The notes below the pieces were generated by a model. It had not been told where the DNA came from. It searched no databases and saw only the letters and a list, made by a program, of their open reading frames with translations. The position numbers and the translations under genes were made by a program. Below are positions 1-5,644 of a stretch of DNA of 5,644 nt, in pieces. Positions within the stretch are counted from its first letter, which is position 1. Every line of letters begins with the position of its first letter. The stretch spans positions 1 through 5,644 of the forward strand of contig JAUVDU010000133.1 in assembly GCA_030595135.1 (NCBI GenBank), in the 5' to 3' direction. This DNA is from Deltaproteobacteria bacterium. Lineage in GTDB: Bacteria > Desulfobacterota > Anaeroferrophillalia > Anaeroferrophillales > Tharpellaceae.

Positions 1-174
1 ATGGCTAATGTCTCACAGCATTTGCGGCTGATGCGTAATCAGGGTGCGGTGGGTTTTCGGCGGGAGGGAAAAACCGTCTACTATCGGGTTGCCAATCCGA
101 AATTTATTGAAGGGATGATGAAGGTGCGTGAAGGTTTATTAGAAGAGTTGCGGAAAAAAGGAGAAATTGTCTGA
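1..174 (+). CDS. ArsR-family winged-helix transcriptional regulator, C-terminal part (5' truncated)
   Basis: This is the last 57 codons of a gene cut by the window's left edge; the first ATG is probably internal. The residues ANVSQHLRLMRNQGAVGFR look like the recognition helix of an ArsR/SmtB-type helix-turn-helix. They are followed by the beta-wing (REGKTVYYRV) and a final amphipathic helix ending LLEELRKKGEIV, as is usual for this family. ArsR proteins are dimeric DNA-binding repressors that respond to metals, thiols or reactive sulfur. The visible part has no cysteine, and the last helix has no Cys or His, so a C-terminal-helix metal or dithiol site is unlikely; sensor residues could lie in the missing N-terminus. 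The TGA stop overlaps the next start codon (TGATG), so it is probably translated together with the octaheme cytochrome and may regulate that operon. The family call is firm; the effector is unknown. Confidence 0.8.
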   Translation: MANVSQHLRLMRNQGAVGFRREGKTVYYRVANPKFIEGMMKVREGLLEELRKKGEIV

Positions 175-272
175 TGCAAAAGAGATATTTTGTTTTTGGT
201 CTGATCTGCATGGCGTTACTGCTCGGGATTTGGGGCGGCGGGGTCAAACCGGAGTTGGTAAAAGAAGCGTAT
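174..272 (+). other. Signal peptide / N-terminal export segment of the octaheme cytochrome
   Basis: Residues 1-33 have a short basic start (K3, R4), then a hydrophobic core from about residue 5 to 20 (FVFGLICMALLLGIW), then a polar stretch. This is a Sec-type export signal, as needed for heme attachment in the periplasm. The cleavage site is unclear (perhaps near EAYGG, residues 31-35). It could instead stay as an uncleaved anchor. Confidence 0.65.
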
Positions 273-1775
273 GGGGGCATATCGACTGCCGATCACGGCC
301 GTTTTGTTGAACTTGATAAACCTTTTGCTTCAGGGCCTGAGGTAACCAGAGCCTGTTTGAAATGTCACAATCTCGCAGCCGGTCAGGTACACCGTTCCAT
401 TCATTGGACTTGGGAGTGTAACAAGGGGGCTGAAGAAGGCCTGGGCAAGGCCCATGTCGTTAATAATTTCTGAATATCGCCACAATCGAACTGGTGCAGG
501 TGCACCAGCTGTCATGCCGGTTATGGTTGGAAAGAGAAGAACTATGATTTTACGGTTGAAGAGAATGTTGATTGTCTGATCTGTCATGATACCACCGGAA
601 CCTATCGCAAATTTCCGACCGCTTGCGGGCATCCGGCGTATGAAGATAAGAAGTTTGGCAACAAACTGTTTGAAGCGGTTGATCTGCGGAAAGTTGCACT
701 TAAGGTTGGGGCGACGAGTCGGACGACTTGCGGGAGTTGTCATTTTTATGGCGGCGGCGGCGACGGAGTTAAGCATGGTGATCTCGATTCGTCACTGCTA
801 AAAGCGAGTAAAACTCTCGATGTGCATATGGATGTGAAGGGTTTGAACTACTCCTGTACTGCCTGTCATACGACCAAAGGCCACCAGATTTCGGGGCGTT
901 GTTATTCGCAGGCCGCATCTAATAAACATCAACTGGCCCTGCCGAAAGATGATGGCGAACGTCTGGCCTGCGAATCGTGTCATAGCCGGTCGCCGCATAA
1001 AAATGGAGATATTTTAAACCATCATAGCGATAAAGTCGCCTGTCAGACCTGTCATATCCCGCAATATGCGCGGGGCGGAGTATTTACCAAAATGTGGTGG
1101 GATTGGAGCACGGCGGGGACAATGGACGAAAACGGTAAGCCTATTGTTAAAAAAGATGAGCACGGCAATCTCATATTTCACAGTAAGAAAGGGGGTATGG
1201 GTTGGGCCCAAAATGTGAATCCTGAATATGGTTGGTACAATGGTTCAATGAGTTATTTCCGGTCGAGTGACAAGATTCCGCCGGGCGCGGAAAAAATCGA
1301 AATTAACTCTCTAAAAGGTGATTACGAAGATCCCGCAGCGCGGATTTTTCCCTTTAAAGTCATGCGCGCAAAACAGCCATATGATCCGGAAAACCGAACC
1401 TTGCTCATTCCCTATCTTGCCGGAAAAGAGGGTAGCGGGGCTTATTGGGGGGATTATGATTGGCAAAAGGCGGGTGAAGTCGGCATGCAGGAAGTCGGTC
1501 TTCCGTTTAGTGGAAAGGTTGATTTTATCGAGAGTGATATGTACTGGCCGATCACCCATATGGTTGCACCTAAAGAGCAGGCTCTCTCCTGTGAAGAGTG
1601 TCATAGTCGTAATGGCCGCTTGGCCAACTTGAAGGGTTTCTATCTGCCGGGACGTGATCGTTGGAGCCTGCTTGATCGTCTGGCTTGGCTGGCTCTGGGA
1701 TTGACCTTGTTAGGCATTTTGCTGCATGCCGGTTTGCGTTTTGTCAGTGCCGGTCGCAAGGGAGGGCAATCATGA
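174..1775 (+). CDS. Octaheme c-type cytochrome, octaheme tetrathionate reductase (OTR) family, with probable selenocysteine at residue 100 (in-frame TGA)
   Basis: Reading the TGA at 471-473 as an amino acid gives a 533-residue protein with eight CXXCH heme sites starting at residues 61, 110, 134, 186, 228, 266, 290 and 473. That is the heme count that defines the OTR family. Residues 1-33 form a signal peptide or anchor (KR followed by a hydrophobic stretch), so the enzyme is exported. Residues 193-205 (GGGGDGVKHGDLD) carry Asp197 and Lys200, which match by spacing the Asp and the Lys heme ligand of the Shewanella OTR active site (recalled: Asp150, Lys153). Other family blocks are TKMWWDWSTAG, KVMRAKQPYD and MYWPITHMVAPKE. 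Residues about 504-522 are a C-terminal transmembrane helix. OTR enzymes reduce tetrathionate and also nitrite and hydroxylamine in vitro; the natural substrate here is unknown. The start is set by AAGGAG at 158-163 and the TGATG overlap with the regulator. The alternative is a nonsense-mutated pseudogene, but no other lesion is present and a SECIS-like hairpin follows the TGA. Confidence 0.88.
471..473 (+). other. In-frame TGA codon 100, probable selenocysteine codon
   Basis: The TGA lies between VVNNF and ISPQSN in the frame that continues without another stop to 1773. In OTR homologues as I remember them, the corresponding motif is NNFC, with the cysteine next to the active-site heme (Cys64 of Shewanella OTR, recalled). 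TGA replacing TGC/TGT at a catalytic cysteine is the classic signature of selenocysteine. One heme motif lies before it and seven after it, so only read-through gives the octaheme protein. A hairpin meeting bacterial SECIS rules follows at 491-508. Confidence 0.85.
480..526 (+). promoter_or_regulatory. Bacterial SECIS-like stem-loop directing UGA recoding
   Basis: Bases 491-497 (CTGGTGC) pair perfectly with 502-508 (GCACCAG), closing a four-base loop AGGT at 498-501. The loop starts 24 bases after the TGA and has G as its second base, which fits the published bacterial SECIS consensus (loop about 16-37 bases after UGA, a G in the first two loop positions). The top of the element (TGCAGGT, then GCACC) closely resembles the apical part of E. 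coli fdhF SECIS as I recall it. A lower stem is possible: 480-482 with 524-526 and 484-488 with 518-522, one of the latter pairs being G-U. SelB would bind this mRNA hairpin to deliver Sec-tRNA. The pairing is seen directly; the function is inferred. Confidence 0.82.
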
Positions 1776-2386
1776 AGATAAAACTCCAACTTTATACCCG
1801 TTTTGAACGGTTTTGGCACTGGTTTCAGGCCTTTTTGATCATCTTTTTACTGATTACCGGTTTCGAGGTGCATGGCAGCTGTAAAATCTTCGGTTATGAC
1901 GCTGCCTGTCGCTGGCATAATCTGGCCGGAATAACGCTGTTGGCTTTAAGTTCTTTCGCCATTTTCTGGCACCTGACTACCGGTCAGTGGCGTCACTACC
2001 GGCCCAGTTTTGAAAATCTGCAAAAGATTATCGGCTACTATCTTGTCGGCATCATGCGCGGTGAGCACCACCCTTTTCACAAAAGTGAAGAGCGTAAACT
2101 TAATCCCTTACAGGCCCTCTCATATTCTTTTCTGAAAGTGTTTCTGCTGCCGCTGCAACTCTTATCCGGTCTGCTCTATTATTACTATAATGACTGGATC
2201 AACTGGGGCTTTGCGGCGCGGCTGGACGGGGTCGCGTTTCTGCATACGGCGATGGCCTTTGCCATGCTTCTCTTTCTGGTTGTGCATGTCTATCTGACGA
2301 CCACCGGCGGCACTTTGCTCACTTATACCAAATCGATGTTTACCGGGTGGGAAGAAGTTGATAGCAAAATCATGAGTGAGGAGTGA
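1772..2386 (+). CDS. Membrane-bound cytochrome b (cytochrome b561/thiosulfate reductase cytochrome b-like), partner of the octaheme cytochrome
   Basis: This is a 204-residue integral membrane protein with four predicted helices at about residues 14-34, 49-69, 116-138 and 154-176. Likely b-heme ligands are histidines in or near helices: H16 (FERFWHWFQ), H49 (CRWHN), H67 (FWHLTTGQWRHY), H158 and H172. The pattern FWH..TTG.WR.Y and the helix layout fit the b-type subunits that oxidise quinol and feed periplasmic multiheme or molybdenum reductases. An upstream in-frame start at 1685 would lie inside the cytochrome c gene. The ATG at 1772 is preferred: GGGAGGG at 1761-1767 sits just upstream and the start overlaps the preceding stop (ATGA). 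The gene is therefore translationally coupled to the octaheme cytochrome, which suggests a quinol:octaheme reductase complex in the inner membrane. Exact heme number and ligands are not settled by sequence alone. Confidence 0.83.
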   Translation: MKIKLQLYTRFERFWHWFQAFLIIFLLITGFEVHGSCKIFGYDAACRWHNLAGITLLALSSFAIFWHLTTGQWRHYRPSFENLQKIIGYYLVGIMRGEHHPFHKSEERKLNPLQALSYSFLKVFLLPLQLLSGLLYYYYNDWINWGFAARLDGVAFLHTAMAFAMLLFLVVHVYLTTTGGTLLTYTKSMFTGWEEVDSKIMSEE

Positions 2387-2487: not shown

Positions 2488-2525
2488 AAAAAAAAACGGG
2501 CTCGTGAAAGGGTCCGTTTTTTTAT
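2488..2525 (+). terminator. Intrinsic (rho-independent) terminator of the cytochrome operon
   Basis: Bases 2497-2503 pair with 2510-2516 (CGGGCTC with GGGTCCG, two G-U pairs) around a GTGAAA loop. The stem is extended by seven A-T pairs between the A-run before it and the T-run 2517-2523 after it. The A-run/T-run symmetry means it could work on either strand, but only + strand genes are present. It ends the regulator-cytochrome c-cytochrome b unit and separates it from transketolase, whose start is 45 bases further on. Confidence 0.85.
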
Positions 2526-2569: not shown

Positions 2570-4573
2570 ATGTCTGTGAATTTGGAAGAAAAATGTATTA
2601 ATACGATCCGTTTTTTGGCAGTTGATATGGTTGAAAGGGCCAATTCCGGGCATCCGGGGATGCCGATGGGGGCGGCTGCCATGGCCCACATCCTCTGGAG
2701 TCGTTTTTTGCAGCATAATCCGGCTAATCCCGAATGGCCCGACCGCGACCGTTTTATCCTCTCGGCCGGACATGGTTCGGCCCTGCTCTATGCTCTGCTC
2801 CATCTCAGCGGTTATCCTTTAACTCTTGATGATCTGAAAAACTTCCGTCAATGGGGTAGTTTGACGCCGGGTCACCCCGAATATCGTCATACTCCCGGGG
2901 TTGAAATGACGACCGGACCTTTAGGTCAGGGGTTGGCCACCGGAGTCGGTATGGCGATGGCCGAAAGAAGTCTGGCGGCGGCCTTTAATAAACCCAAATT
3001 TCCGGTTGTCGACCACTTTACTTACGGGATTGTCGGCGACGGAGACCTGATGGAGGGGATCTCGCATGAGGCCGCATCGTTGGCCGGGAACCTCAAGTTG
3101 GGAAAACTTATCTACCTTTACGATGATAACCATATCTCGATCGAAGGTGATACCGCAATCACTTTTAGCGAAGATCGGGCCGCCCGTTTTCGGGCCTACG
3201 GCTGGCAGGTGATTGAGGTTGCCGATGGTAATGATTGTGCGGCTATCGCCGCAGCTCTGACCGCAGCTCGCGAAGATCTTGAGCGTCCCAGCTTGATTGC
3301 GGTTCGCACTCATATCGGTTTTGGGAGTCCGGCGAAACAGGATACCGCCTCGGCTCACGGTGAGCCTTTGGGGGCGCAAGAGATTATTACGACCAAAAAG
3401 AATCTCGGTTGGCCGGCTGAAACGGACTTTTTGGTTGAAGACGATGTCTATGAAAGTTATCGCCAGGTAAAGACGGCCGGAATTAAAGCCCAGGAGGAGT
3501 GGCAGAGCATGATGGCGGCTTATCAAGAGCAATTCCCCGAATTGGCGGCTGAATGGGAGCGTCGTCAAGCCGGTGAATTTCCGGTCGATTGGGAAAAATC
3601 TCTGCCCAGCTTTCCGGCTGACGAGAAAGGCCTGGCCACGCGGGCTGTTTCCGGTAAGATGATCAATGCCTTGGCCGGAGTTTTACCGGAATTGATGGGT
3701 GGTTCAGCCGATCTCGGCCCCTCCAATAAAACTCTGATTAACGAGGCTGCGGATTTTGCCGCGCCCGATTTTGCGGGTCGTAATATCCGTTTCGGGGTGC
3801 GTGAACATGCTATGGGCGCGGTGCTTAACGGACTTGCCCTGCATCGGGGTCTGCGCGTTTACGGCGGTACTTTTCTGGTCTTTTGCGACTATATGAAACC
3901 GGCAATTCGCCTGGCGGCGATGATGGGTTTGCCGGTTATCTATATTTTCACTCATGACAGTATCGGTCTCGGCGAGGATGGGCCGACCCACCAGCCGATC
4001 GAGCATCTTGCGAGTTTACGCGTAATTCCCAACCTGACCGTAATCCGGCCTGCCGATGCTAATGAAACCGTGGCCGCCTGGAGCGAGGCTTTACGTCGTC
4101 AGGATGGCCCCACAGCCTTGATTTTGACCCGGCAGAACCTGCCGACGCTGGCGCCGATGGTTGAAAAATCTGCGGCGGGATTGCATCGCGGAGCCTACGT
4201 TGTGACTGAGGTTGAGACCGAAACCGCCGATATCACGCTGATCGGCACAGGTTCAGAGCTTTCTCTGGCCTATGCGGCGGCTTTAGAACTTAAGCAAAAA
4301 GGGATTTCGGCCCGGGTTGTCAGTATGCCGAGCTGGGAACTTTTCGGGAAACAATCCAAAGCCTACAAGTATCAAGTTTTGCCCCCGGACGGTCGCCGCC
4401 TGGCGATTGAGGCGGGCTCGTCAATGGGTTGGCATCGTTATCTGAAAGGTCGGGGTGAAATAATCGCAATCGACCATTTCGGTGCTTCAGCTCCGGCTTC
4501 CGAACTTTTTAAACAATTTAGAATTACTCAGGAAGAGATTGTGCGCCGGGCCGTGGCTTTGTGTGCTCAGTAA
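2570..4573 (+). CDS. tkt: Transketolase
   Basis: This is a complete 667-residue transketolase, close to the length of E. coli TktA (663). The enzyme moves two-carbon ketol units between sugar phosphates using thiamine diphosphate (ThDP) and a divalent metal, in the cytoplasmic pentose phosphate or Calvin-type pathways. The N-terminal ThDP/metal domain shows SGHPG (H28), SAGHGS (H68), TPGHPE (H102), GPLGQG (116-121), GDGD (157-160) and DDNHISIEG (N187). The central pyrimidine-binding domain has GVREHAMG with catalytic Glu412 and [11 protein letters not shown] with Asp470 and His474. The C-terminal domain follows with [14 protein letters not shown] and SMPSWELF. All expected catalytic residues are present. 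The start at 2570 gives the normal family N-terminus; an upstream in-frame start at 2444 would add 42 residues read through the terminator and is rejected. It is followed after 27 bases by a phosphoglucose isomerase gene, probably co-transcribed. Confidence 0.96.
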
Positions 4574-4600: not shown

Positions 4601-5644
4601 ATGTTCGATATTCTCTTGAATGGTTTAGAAATTCAGGCGGGAGCGGTGGCTGCGCCGCTGGCTGAGCGCTTAAGTCAGTGGGATCGTGAAAATTTATGCT
4701 CTCGTATCTGGCAGCATGATGGCACTGTTTGGGTGAAAGATCCGCAACTGGCTGAAAATACGCCAGAGTTAGCCAATCGTCTGGGTTGGCTTGAATTGCC
4801 AAAGATAATGGCCGATCTCGTTTCAGATATTGATCGGTTTGTCGCGGAGGTGGTGGCTTCCGGTTTTACGCGGGTTGTCGTTTTAGGGATGGGCGGCAGC
4901 AGTTTGATTGCCGAGGTCTGGGATAAAGTCTTTGGTGTGGCCGAAGGTTTTATCCCGGTTACAATCTTAGACAGCACCCATCCTCAGGCGGTTGCCCGCA
5001 TCGCTGAGACCGGAGCGCTTGAGACCACCCTCTTTCTGGTTTCGAGTAAATCCGGCGGCACCCTTGAAACCCTCTCCTTCTTTAACTATTTTTACGCTCA
5101 ATTAACTCTCCTGAAAGAAAACCCCGGCGAAAATTTTACGGCGATTACTGATCCCGGTTCCAAGCTTGAGGTTCTGGCCCGAGAGAGAGGTTTTCGCAAA
5201 ATCTTCTCGACTCCTACCGAGGTTGGCGGCCGCTATTCGGCTCTGACCTGTTTTGGTCTTCTACCGGCGGCGCTGTTGGGTCTGCCGCCAGGGGATCTTC
5301 TGGCTCGGGCCCAAGCGATGATGGCCGCCTGCTCTTCAGGAGTTTCGGCCACAGATAATCCAGCTCTACAACTGGGAGTTTTTCTCGGTGAAATGGCGCG
5401 GGCCGGTCGCGATAAAATGACGCTGGTTTTATCGCCTGGTTTGCAGCCCTTTGCCGTCTGGCTCGAACAACTATTAGCTGAAAGCACCGGGAAAAAGGGC
5501 TATGGTCTGGTTCCGGTCATTGTTGCTGCCGATGATGATGCGTTACCTTTTCTCGATTGTCATAATAAACCCGCAAAAGATCGTTTTTATCTCTTTCTGC
5601 GGCTCGCAGATGACGAAAATTTAAGTTTGGATTCAGCCCGGGTT
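4601..5644 (+). CDS. pgi: Glucose-6-phosphate isomerase (phosphoglucose isomerase), 3' truncated by the window
   Basis: The first 348 codons of a phosphoglucose isomerase are visible; the frame is open at the right edge. The enzyme interconverts glucose 6-phosphate and fructose 6-phosphate in the cytoplasm. Sugar-isomerase (SIS) fold motifs appear in order: LGMGGSSL (95-102), the phosphate-binding loop SSKSGGTLET (148-157), EVGGRYSALT (207-216) with the conserved Arg211, and LLAESTGKKG with the likely catalytic Glu294. The start region (SRIWQHDGTVWVKDP and NRLGWLELP) resembles the isomerase half of bifunctional transaldolase/phosphoglucose isomerase proteins more than E. coli-type Pgi. Here no transaldolase precedes it: the upstream gene is transketolase, and a strong Shine-Dalgarno sets an independent start. 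With transketolase it forms a sugar-phosphate unit. The catalytic histidine expected further on cannot be confirmed because of truncation. Confidence 0.9.
   Translation, partial: MFDILLNGLEIQAGAVAAPLAERLSQWDRENLCSRIWQHDGTVWVKDPQLAENTPELANRLGWLELPKIMADLVSDIDRFVAEVVASGFTRVVVLGMGGSSLIAEVWDKVFGVAEGFIPVTILDSTHPQAVARIAETGALETTLFLVSSKSGGTLETLSFFNYFYAQLTLLKENPGENFTAITDPGSKLEVLARERGFRKIFSTPTEVGGRYSALTCFGLLPAALLGLPPGDLLARAQAMMAACSSGVSATDNPALQLGVFLGEMARAGRDKMTLVLSPGLQPFAVWLEQLLAESTGKKGYGLVPVIVAADDDALPFLDCHNKPAKDRFYLFLRLADDENLSLDSARV

What the first reader, a model, noticed from the sequence alone, without database searches (positions are those of the whole stretch)
174..1775. Probable selenocysteine-containing octaheme cytochrome c (OTR family)
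Seen: one frame, open from 174 to 1775 except for a single TGA at codon 100, encodes exactly eight CXXCH motifs, one before and seven after the TGA. No frameshift or other stop exists. Known: OTR-family enzymes have eight hemes and, as I recall, a cysteine at the NNFC position near the Lys-ligated active-site heme. Inference: TGA replaces that cysteine with selenocysteine, placing a selenolate by the heme where a sulfur substrate such as tetrathionate or a polysulfide would bind. I know of no described selenoprotein in this multiheme family, but I could not search.
Basis: partly seen in the sequence, partly recalled or inferred. Interest (0 to 1): 0.94.

Follow-up and report, generated by a model that had tools for sequence, protein, structure and literature searches.

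The report
Selenocysteine in an octaheme cytochrome
A bacterium's eight-heme cytochrome gene carries a TGA codon where nearly all compared relatives have TGA or a cysteine codon, followed by a short sequence able to form a hairpin, so it likely inserts selenocysteine next to the heme thought to break sulfur-sulfur bonds; the protein family already stands in a published selenoprotein list.

Summary
174-1775 is one frame with a single internal TGA (471-473, codon 100) and eight CXXCH motifs; it scores 611.8 bits to TIGR04315 (cut-off 375). The TGA falls on the Cys of NNFC, residue 64 of the Shewanella OTR chain 1SP3. Among 153 distinct OTR loci compared the site is TGA in 39, TGC/TGT in 113 and Thr in 1. 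All 39 TGA copies carry one of two SECIS-like hairpins at fixed distance; 0 of 109 Cys copies examined carry either string. The window's genome holds selA and tRNA-Sec, and a selB fragment cut by a contig end. Sec rows do not form one clade (p-AU 5e-6), with at least four Cys/Sec changes. The commoner hairpin comes with a protein change: Cys108 is in 34 of 34 copies with that hairpin and 0 of 109 Cys copies, so the RNA likely dictates the residue. The likely, untested function is a membrane-anchored tetrathionate-type sulfur reductase fed by the downstream cytochrome b. The selenoprotein status of the family is not new: a 2026 review table lists TIGR04315 (WP_331457571.1, 'GenBank annotated'). 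So this is a new member of a known kind.

The parts
174..1775 (+). OTR-family octaheme cytochrome c gene, read through the internal TGA (533 aa)
   Evidence: TIGR04315 611.8 bits, cut-off 375; PF11783 236 bits; 1SP3 E 5.4e-116
174..278 (+). N-terminal hydrophobic stretch, signal peptide or anchor (residues 1-35)
   Evidence: read from the translation; not tested with a signal-peptide program
471..473 (+). in-frame TGA, codon 100, predicted selenocysteine
   Evidence: TGA in 39, TGC/TGT in 113, Thr codon in 1 of 153 distinct OTR loci
491..508 (+). SECIS-like hairpin CTGGTGC-AGGT-GCACCAG, stem from 17 nt and loop from 24 nt after the TGA
   Evidence: folds alone at -12.2 kcal/mol, z -2.5; 5 of 6 invariant degenerate columns here have a single codon in 17 orthologues against 3 of 151 elsewhere; a longer stretch prefers a competing fold
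495..497 (+). Cys108 codon inside the hairpin, an extra Cys not seen in the Cys-type relatives examined
   Evidence: Cys in 34 of 34 copies with this hairpin, Ala in 5 of 5 with the other hairpin, Cys in 0 of 109 Cys-type copies
501..515 (+). second CXXCH (residues 110-114), attachment of the putative catalytic heme 2
   Evidence: alignment to 1SP3, first Cys at chain index 74
771..773 (+). Lys200 codon, aligned with chain index 153 of 1SP3, the predicted heme-2 iron ligand
   Evidence: invariant in 14 of 14 aligned sequences; chain index computed; a highly conserved Lys ligand of heme 2 is stated in PMC11024163, its number 153 is recalled
1665..1760 (+). C-terminal hydrophobic helix (residues 498-529), predicted membrane anchor
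   Evidence: sequence; helix 498-529 in an otherwise poor model
1772..2386 (+). cytochrome b561-type membrane protein, overlapping the OTR stop (ATGA); likely quinol-side electron donor
   Evidence: PF01292 83.7 bits; homologue downstream in 34 of 38 Sec loci and 80 of 104 Cys loci
1..174 (+). 3' part of an ArsR/SmtB-family regulator gene (the contig begins inside it)
   Evidence: below cut-off, as a fragment; two full-length homologues pass the NF033788 cut-off; homologue upstream in 18 of 37 Sec loci and 1 of 108 Cys loci
2490..2523 (+). terminator-like hairpin after the cytochrome b gene
   Evidence: consensus scan, 14 pairs then T run; 6 such sites found against 3.5 expected, so weak on its own

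Best explanation
The gene encodes an octaheme cytochrome c of the OTR family with a TGA codon in place of the family's nearly invariant cysteine, and it is predicted to be read as selenocysteine and likely to work in the periplasm as a reductase of tetrathionate or a related sulfur compound. Shown: family, TGA at the Cys column, conserved hairpin sequences, selA and tRNA-Sec in the genome, and a cytochrome b gene directly downstream. Inferred: SelB loads selenocysteine at the hairpin; electrons pass from quinol through the cytochrome b and the heme chain to Lys-ligated heme 2; the selenolate of residue 100 attacks a sulfur-sulfur bond at that heme, releasing thiosulfate and leaving a selenium-sulfur adduct that heme-2 electrons then reduce. 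Selenium would make this step faster or more reversible than the cysteine of relatives. The ArsR-family regulator upstream may switch the operon on in response to a sulfur or metal signal (untested).
For: Family and eight motifs. Site: TGA lies on the Cys of NNFC, chain index 64 of 1SP3; 39 TGA, 113 Cys, 1 Thr in 153 distinct OTR loci, counted by profile alignment without a motif. Hairpins: two unrelated stem sequences, each about 7 bp at a fixed distance from the TGA (34 with loop from 24 nt, 5 with loop from 20 nt), absent as strings from 109 Cys copies. By a perfect-stem count, 32 of 32 Sec copies have 7 bp or more against 1 of 40 Cys copies. In L091 the outermost pair is C-G changed to T-A on both sides. 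Codon constraint: Fisher p 4e-7. Arg109 is AGG in all 31 copies that have Arg with the commoner hairpin, and in 1 of the 68 Arg-bearing Cys copies listed (one search listed 100 of 109). Decoding genes: selA G000:C393, 598.5 bits; tRNA-Sec G000:C143, 69.7 bits, over cut-off; first 104 positions of selB, 163.8 bits, ending at a contig end. selD of relatives: 18 of the 19 copies over cut-off carry one TGA, the nineteenth being a fragment, with an 8-bp hairpin in a same-genus copy. Function: a purified OTR relative reduced tetrathionate at up to 93 and nitrite at about 1.3 umol/min/mg (PMC6449678, passages).
Against: No selenium or protein data were available for any copy. selD was not over cut-off in the window's genome (70.5% complete), and selB there is a fragment that does not reach the family's cut-off of 242.25 bits. 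One OTR copy over the family cut-off, L103, has Thr at the site, so the residue is not indispensable to the fold. Rfam gave no match at the hairpin. In the 45-nt folds, 27 of 32 sequences show the short hairpin as the optimum; 5, the window among them, prefer a longer competing pairing (also, where the 71-nt window fold has z only -1.46). tRNA-Sec is over cut-off in 355 of 395 genomes of the phylum, so its presence hardly discriminates. The substrate is inferred: OTR also reduces nitrite and hydroxylamine, and its function is called cryptic (PMC11024163). The position of residue 64 beside heme 2 is recalled from the 1SP3 literature, not measured here. The AlphaFold model was too poor to use (mean pLDDT 48.7).
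Confidence: 0.8

Rival explanations
1. The protein is a selenoprotein of the OTR fold, but its natural substrate is not a sulfur compound: it reduces nitrite, hydroxylamine, selenite or another acceptor, with Sec as a tuning residue near the heme.
For: S. oneidensis OTR reduces nitrite and hydroxylamine as well as tetrathionate and is called cryptic in function (PMC11024163). The multiheme selenoprotein candidate ExtKL of Geobacter is linked to selenite reduction (PMC5877670).
Against: A purified OTR relative was far more active on tetrathionate than on nitrite (PMC6449678). Authors of the Ca. Tharpella study note scarce oxidized nitrogen in the Auka sediments (PMC9213671).
Confidence: 0.3
2. 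The TGA is a real stop: a pseudogene, a sequencing error, or a truncated 99-residue protein with a separately started heptaheme product.
For: Public protein records exist for the piece after the TGA alone: P0002-P0005 and P0007 (433-440 aa, seven CXXCH) begin with Met within a few residues after the site, as gene callers would make them.
Against: Exactly one stop, always TGA and always at the Cys codon, in 17 of 17 genomes of the order that cover the site and in 39 distinct loci. Hairpin and synonymous-codon constraint follow the TGA. Conserved residues continue on both sides.
Confidence: 0.03
3. Cys108 is not a by-product of the RNA hairpin but a functional partner that forms a selenium-sulfur bridge with Sec100.
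For: Cys108 is in 34 of 34 copies with the commoner hairpin and in 0 of 109 Cys copies; Sec and a nearby Cys often pair in selenoenzymes (general knowledge).
Against: All 5 Sec copies with the other hairpin have Ala there, so Sec appears to work without it. The codons of Cys108, Arg109 and their neighbours are also frozen at synonymous positions, which points to RNA constraint.
Confidence: 0.15

Closest known systems
Octaheme tetrathionate reductase (OTR) of Shewanella oneidensis, PDB 1SP3 (SO4144), family TIGR04315
   Same: Sequence match E 5.4e-116 over residues 47-483, eight CXXCH motifs, Lys aligned with chain index 153, Asp with 150, Cys column at 64.
   Different: The Cys is TGA here; there is a C-terminal hydrophobic helix after the last heme; the next gene is a cytochrome b.
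TIGR04315 selenoprotein WP_331457571.1 listed in the 2026 prokaryotic selenoproteome review (PMC13188914)
   Same: Same family, listed with one Sec, source 'GenBank annotated', no motif given (passages).
   Different: The record was not available to me, so I could not check that its Sec sits at this codon; the passages read say nothing on hairpin, distribution or function of this family.
ExtKL of Geobacter, multiheme cytochrome proposed to contain selenocysteine
   Same: A c-type multiheme cytochrome with a proposed Sec (PMC5877670, passages; listed in PMC13188914).
   Different: Five predicted hemes and a different family (NF040886 in the review table).
MmcA of Methanosarcina
   Same: Related to OTR in sequence (PMC11024163, passages); weak hit of TIGR04314 here, 25.3 bits against a cut-off of 250.

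Membership tests
OTR family (TIGR04315) | profile score over the curated cut-off | tested here: met
   611.8 bits against 375
OTR family (TIGR04315) | eight CXXCH heme-binding motifs | tested here: met
   8 in the read-through frame
OTR family (TIGR04315) | conserved Lys that ligates heme 2 | tested here: met
   Lys200 aligns with chain index 153 of 1SP3 and is invariant in 14 of 14; ligation itself is not tested
OTR family (TIGR04315) | Cys at the NNFC column (common feature, not a curated criterion) | tested here: not met
   TGA instead; 39 of 153 OTR loci share this, 113 have Cys and 1 has Thr, so this is a Cys/Sec exchange within the family and does not exclude membership
OTR family (TIGR04315) | tetrathionate reductase activity | not testable with these tools
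   no enzyme data for this protein
Bacterial selenoprotein | in-frame TGA conserved across species at a Cys column | tested here: met
Bacterial selenoprotein | SECIS-like hairpin shortly after the TGA | tested here: met
   39 of 39 TGA loci carry one of two hairpin sequences; no Rfam match; competing fold in 5 of 32
Bacterial selenoprotein | selA, selB, selC and selD in the genome | tested here: inconclusive
   selA and tRNA-Sec over cut-off, selB fragment at a contig end and below cut-off, selD not over cut-off in this 70.5% complete genome but over it in 19 of 23 genomes searched
Bacterial selenoprotein | selenium in the protein | not testable with these tools
   needs 75Se labelling or mass spectrometry

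The most novel reading that the evidence does not exclude
A selenolate-heme enzyme: Sec100 is the catalytic nucleophile beside a Lys-ligated heme c that cuts sulfur-sulfur bonds. The family has switched between Cys and Sec at least four times using two unrelated SECIS hairpins, and the commoner hairpin has rewritten the protein by forcing a cysteine (Cys108) next to the catalytic heme.
Probability: 0.45. Interest if true: 0.75.

Novelty: new member of a known kind. Interest (0 to 1): 0.5.

Why it matters
If right, a branch of Desulfobacterota-type bacteria depends on selenium for a heme enzyme that standard gene calling cuts in two. The study that named Ca. Tharpella called genes with Prodigal, reported that functional enrichment and manual inspection revealed no terminal reductase for common acceptors, and proposed an HAO-type octaheme protein instead (PMC9213671, passages); the read-through OTR is a further candidate. 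The natural Cys and Sec versions, with the structure 1SP3, would let one test what selenium adds to a heme active site. The two hairpins suggest RNA structure steering protein sequence.

Tried and rejected
Pseudogene, read error and code reassignment were rejected by the single conserved TGA, the hairpins and ordinary use of TGA as stop. AlphaFold prediction from 14 sequences gave mean pLDDT 48.7 and carries no main claim. The Rfam scan of the hairpin found nothing. A first ORF-based neighbour count missed overlapping genes (the window's own cytochrome b among them), so the counts quoted come from tblastn on deduplicated loci. One search translated minus-strand loci in the wrong direction and was redone. 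The second sequence was cut at wrong coordinates and replaced. A search for the selD selenocysteine site failed at first and was redone.

Rows dropped or mended: one search used a motif that fixes N-[NSTG]-[FYWL] before the site and so missed L103, an OTR copy over the family cut-off; it also held L030 (302 bits, below the cut-off of 375) and L036 (CAG, not OTR). Five matches over the cut-off had not been fetched; they were added. The motif-free recount (153 loci of 400 bits or more against my own profile: 39 TGA, 113 Cys, 1 Thr) replaces my earlier 'TGA or Cys only'. The hairpin and residue-108 counts remain those (39 Sec and 109 Cys rows, L030 among the latter). In one search two off-site matches (L166, L179) were set aside; their loci also gave a Cys row. 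L104 and L105 are below 400 bits and not counted. The genome-contig scan kept the best 80 of 577 relatives, so the counts are samples, not a census.

Full report
What is there. The window is contig C74 of a 70.5%-complete genome of 2.18 Mb in 415 contigs. Bases 174-1775 are one reading frame with a single internal TGA at 471-473. The read-through protein is an octaheme cytochrome of TIGR04315 (611.8 bits, cut-off 375) with PF11783 and a solved relative, 1SP3, at E 5.4e-116. Eight CXXCH motifs are present, one before and seven after the TGA. The nearest named relative found is Candidatus Tharpella aukensis (L129, 90% identity), from vent sediment and related to Desulfobacterota (PMC9213671, passages). 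The window's own source is not named.

The TGA column. In the phmmer alignment the TGA faces the Cys of NNFC of 1SP3, chain index 64. I recall that Cys64, Asp150 and Lys153 line the OTR active site; the computed indices of the aligned residues are 64, 150 and 153, but the original structure paper was not in the library and was not read. A highly conserved Lys ligand of catalytic heme 2 is stated in PMC11024163 (passage). Loci came from the relatives search, the phylum search, region fetches and the genome-contig scan. Aligned to a profile of 14 sequences and deduplicated, 153 reach 400 bits: 39 have TGA, 81 TGC, 32 TGT and one, L103, a Thr codon. L103 is a longer, 13-CXXCH protein over the family cut-off (464.5 bits), reading NNTT where others read NNFC. 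The 14 Sec loci among the 80 carry titles of Desulfobacterota-type bacteria (Ca. Tharpella, Thermodesulfobacteriota, Deltaproteobacteria, Caldimicrobium, Thermodesulfatator, Desulfobulbus, Desulfobacteraceae, Desulfohalobiaceae) or just 'Proteobacteria' (L130, L132); the other loci carry titles from several phyla, Gamma- and Betaproteobacteria, Chloroflexota and Acidobacteria among them.

The hairpins. In 34 of 39 TGA loci a stem of about 7 bp, TGGTGC core with loop AGGT or AGTT, begins 17 nt after the TGA with the loop at 24 nt. In the other 5 an unrelated stem, GCAACGA-GGC-TCGTTGC, has its loop at 20 nt. None of 109 Cys copies holds either string. With a neutral perfect-stem scan, 32 of 32 Sec copies reach 7 bp or more; 1 of 40 Cys copies does. 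In L091 the outermost pair has changed on both sides. Among 17 orthologues of the order, 158 protein columns are invariant and degenerate. Leaving out the TGA itself, 5 of the 6 columns in the hairpin use a single codon, against 3 of 151 elsewhere (Fisher p 4e-7). Against a simple picture, the optimum 45-nt fold of 5 of 32 sequences, the window included, is a longer competing structure, and Rfam has no matching family.

RNA shapes protein. Two residues before the heme-2 CXXCH, Cys-type OTRs have Pro, Ala, Thr and others but not Cys (0 of 109). Copies with the commoner hairpin have Cys (34 of 34), and copies with the other hairpin have Ala (5 of 5). The simplest reading, an inference, is that the hairpin sequence TGGTGCAGGTGC fixes Trp-Cys-Arg-Cys.

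History. On a tree of 72 rows with the site masked, Sec and Cys need at least four changes (quick method, SH-aLRT support; L103 was left out for want of the motif). Holding all 32 Sec rows together is rejected (p-AU 5.2e-6; the group was defined by codon). The far clade L089, L090, L091, L097 shares the commoner hairpin type with the main clade, so either Sec is old and was lost repeatedly, or hairpin-bearing DNA moved, or the hairpin converged on what SelB prefers. I cannot tell which.

Decoding machinery. selA is full length at G000:C393, tRNA-Sec is over cut-off at G000:C143, and the first 104 positions of selB (163.8 bits, under the whole-family cut-off) end at the contig end of C170. selD was not over cut-off in this genome but was in 19 of 23 genomes searched; 18 of those 19 copies carry their own TGA, and one same-genus copy has an 8-bp hairpin after it. 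tRNA-Sec is near universal in the phylum sample (355 of 395 over cut-off), so its presence permits but does not single out this gene.

Neighbourhood and mechanism. A cytochrome b561-type gene overlaps the OTR stop (ATGA at 1772-1775) and has a homologue downstream in 34 of 38 Sec and 80 of 104 Cys loci; in the count before deduplication the four Sec loci without it are the far clade named above. An ArsR-family regulator lies upstream in 18 of 37 Sec loci and 1 of 108 Cys loci; relatedness of the Sec loci inflates this contrast. Two full-length regulators pass the general ArsR cut-off, with BigR next but well below its cut-off, so what they sense is unknown. The likely path is quinol, cytochrome b, heme chain, heme 2 with Lys200 and Sec100; each step after the gene order is inferred. 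Sulfur chemistry is favoured because a purified OTR relative from Guaymas Beggiatoaceae reduced tetrathionate at up to 93 against about 1.3 umol/min/mg for nitrite (PMC6449678, passages).

What is known. Full-text searches for selenocysteine, octaheme and tetrathionate reductase together (2 papers), selenoprotein with multiheme cytochrome, selenocysteine and UGA (none), and octaheme with selenoprotein (4 papers) led to one paper that, in the passages I read, names this family as a selenoprotein: the table of PMC13188914 lists 'Tetrathionate reductase family octaheme c-type cytochrome, TIGR04315, 1 Sec, WP_331457571.1, GenBank annotated'. Of the other papers in those lists I read passages of PMC5877670 only; PMC7759655, PMC2628731 and PMC11273360 were seen as listings. 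So the selenoprotein status of the family is on record. In what I read I saw nothing on the hairpins, the repeated Cys/Sec switching, the linked Cys108 or the regulator-OTR-cytochrome b group; the library lacks most subscription papers and all preprints, so this is not proof that they are undescribed.

Verdict. It is a strong, well-supported selenoprotein prediction of a kind already listed, with an unusual active-site consequence that is testable in at least one cultured strain.

Noticed in passing
L104 (G170:C98:15477-16670) and L105 (G279:C73:4426-5628): A divergent relative below the TIGR04315 cut-off, with seven CXXCH motifs, has one in-frame TGA in both genomes within GK-x-AGM-x3-Y-TGA-APPNTVAGHNW, which looks like the same position as NNFC; no perfect stem over 4 bp was found after it. 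Possibly a second multiheme selenoprotein.
   Followed up: partly
L103 (G303:C36:5934-7181): A 13-CXXCH protein with an OTR domain over the family cut-off has Thr (ACT) where all the other OTR loci compared have Cys or TGA.
   Followed up: partly
window 1-174: The ArsR-family regulator next to Sec-OTR genes (18 of 37 loci) is almost absent next to Cys-OTR genes (1 of 108); the full-length regulators printed share a HA[SA]FC[TG]IFSS-like stretch with one Cys.
   Followed up: partly
L089, L090, L091, L097: A far clade of Sec-OTRs with AGTT or AGGT loops and no cytochrome b downstream; three of its four genomes (G199, G339, G151) also hold OTR copies without TGA.
   Followed up: partly
L213, L214: selD in a same-phylum and a same-genus genome is itself a TGA-containing gene with a hairpin loop 20-21 nt after the TGA.
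   Followed up: partly
window 2570-4573 and 4601-5644: Transketolase gene and the start of a phosphoglucose isomerase gene follow the cytochrome b gene after a terminator-like hairpin.
   Followed up: no
P0002-P0005 and P0007: Database proteins of this family begin with a Met just after the TGA (433-440 aa, seven CXXCH), as expected when gene callers treat it as a stop; three of the five carry the plain OTR name (P0004, P0005, P0007).
   Followed up: partly
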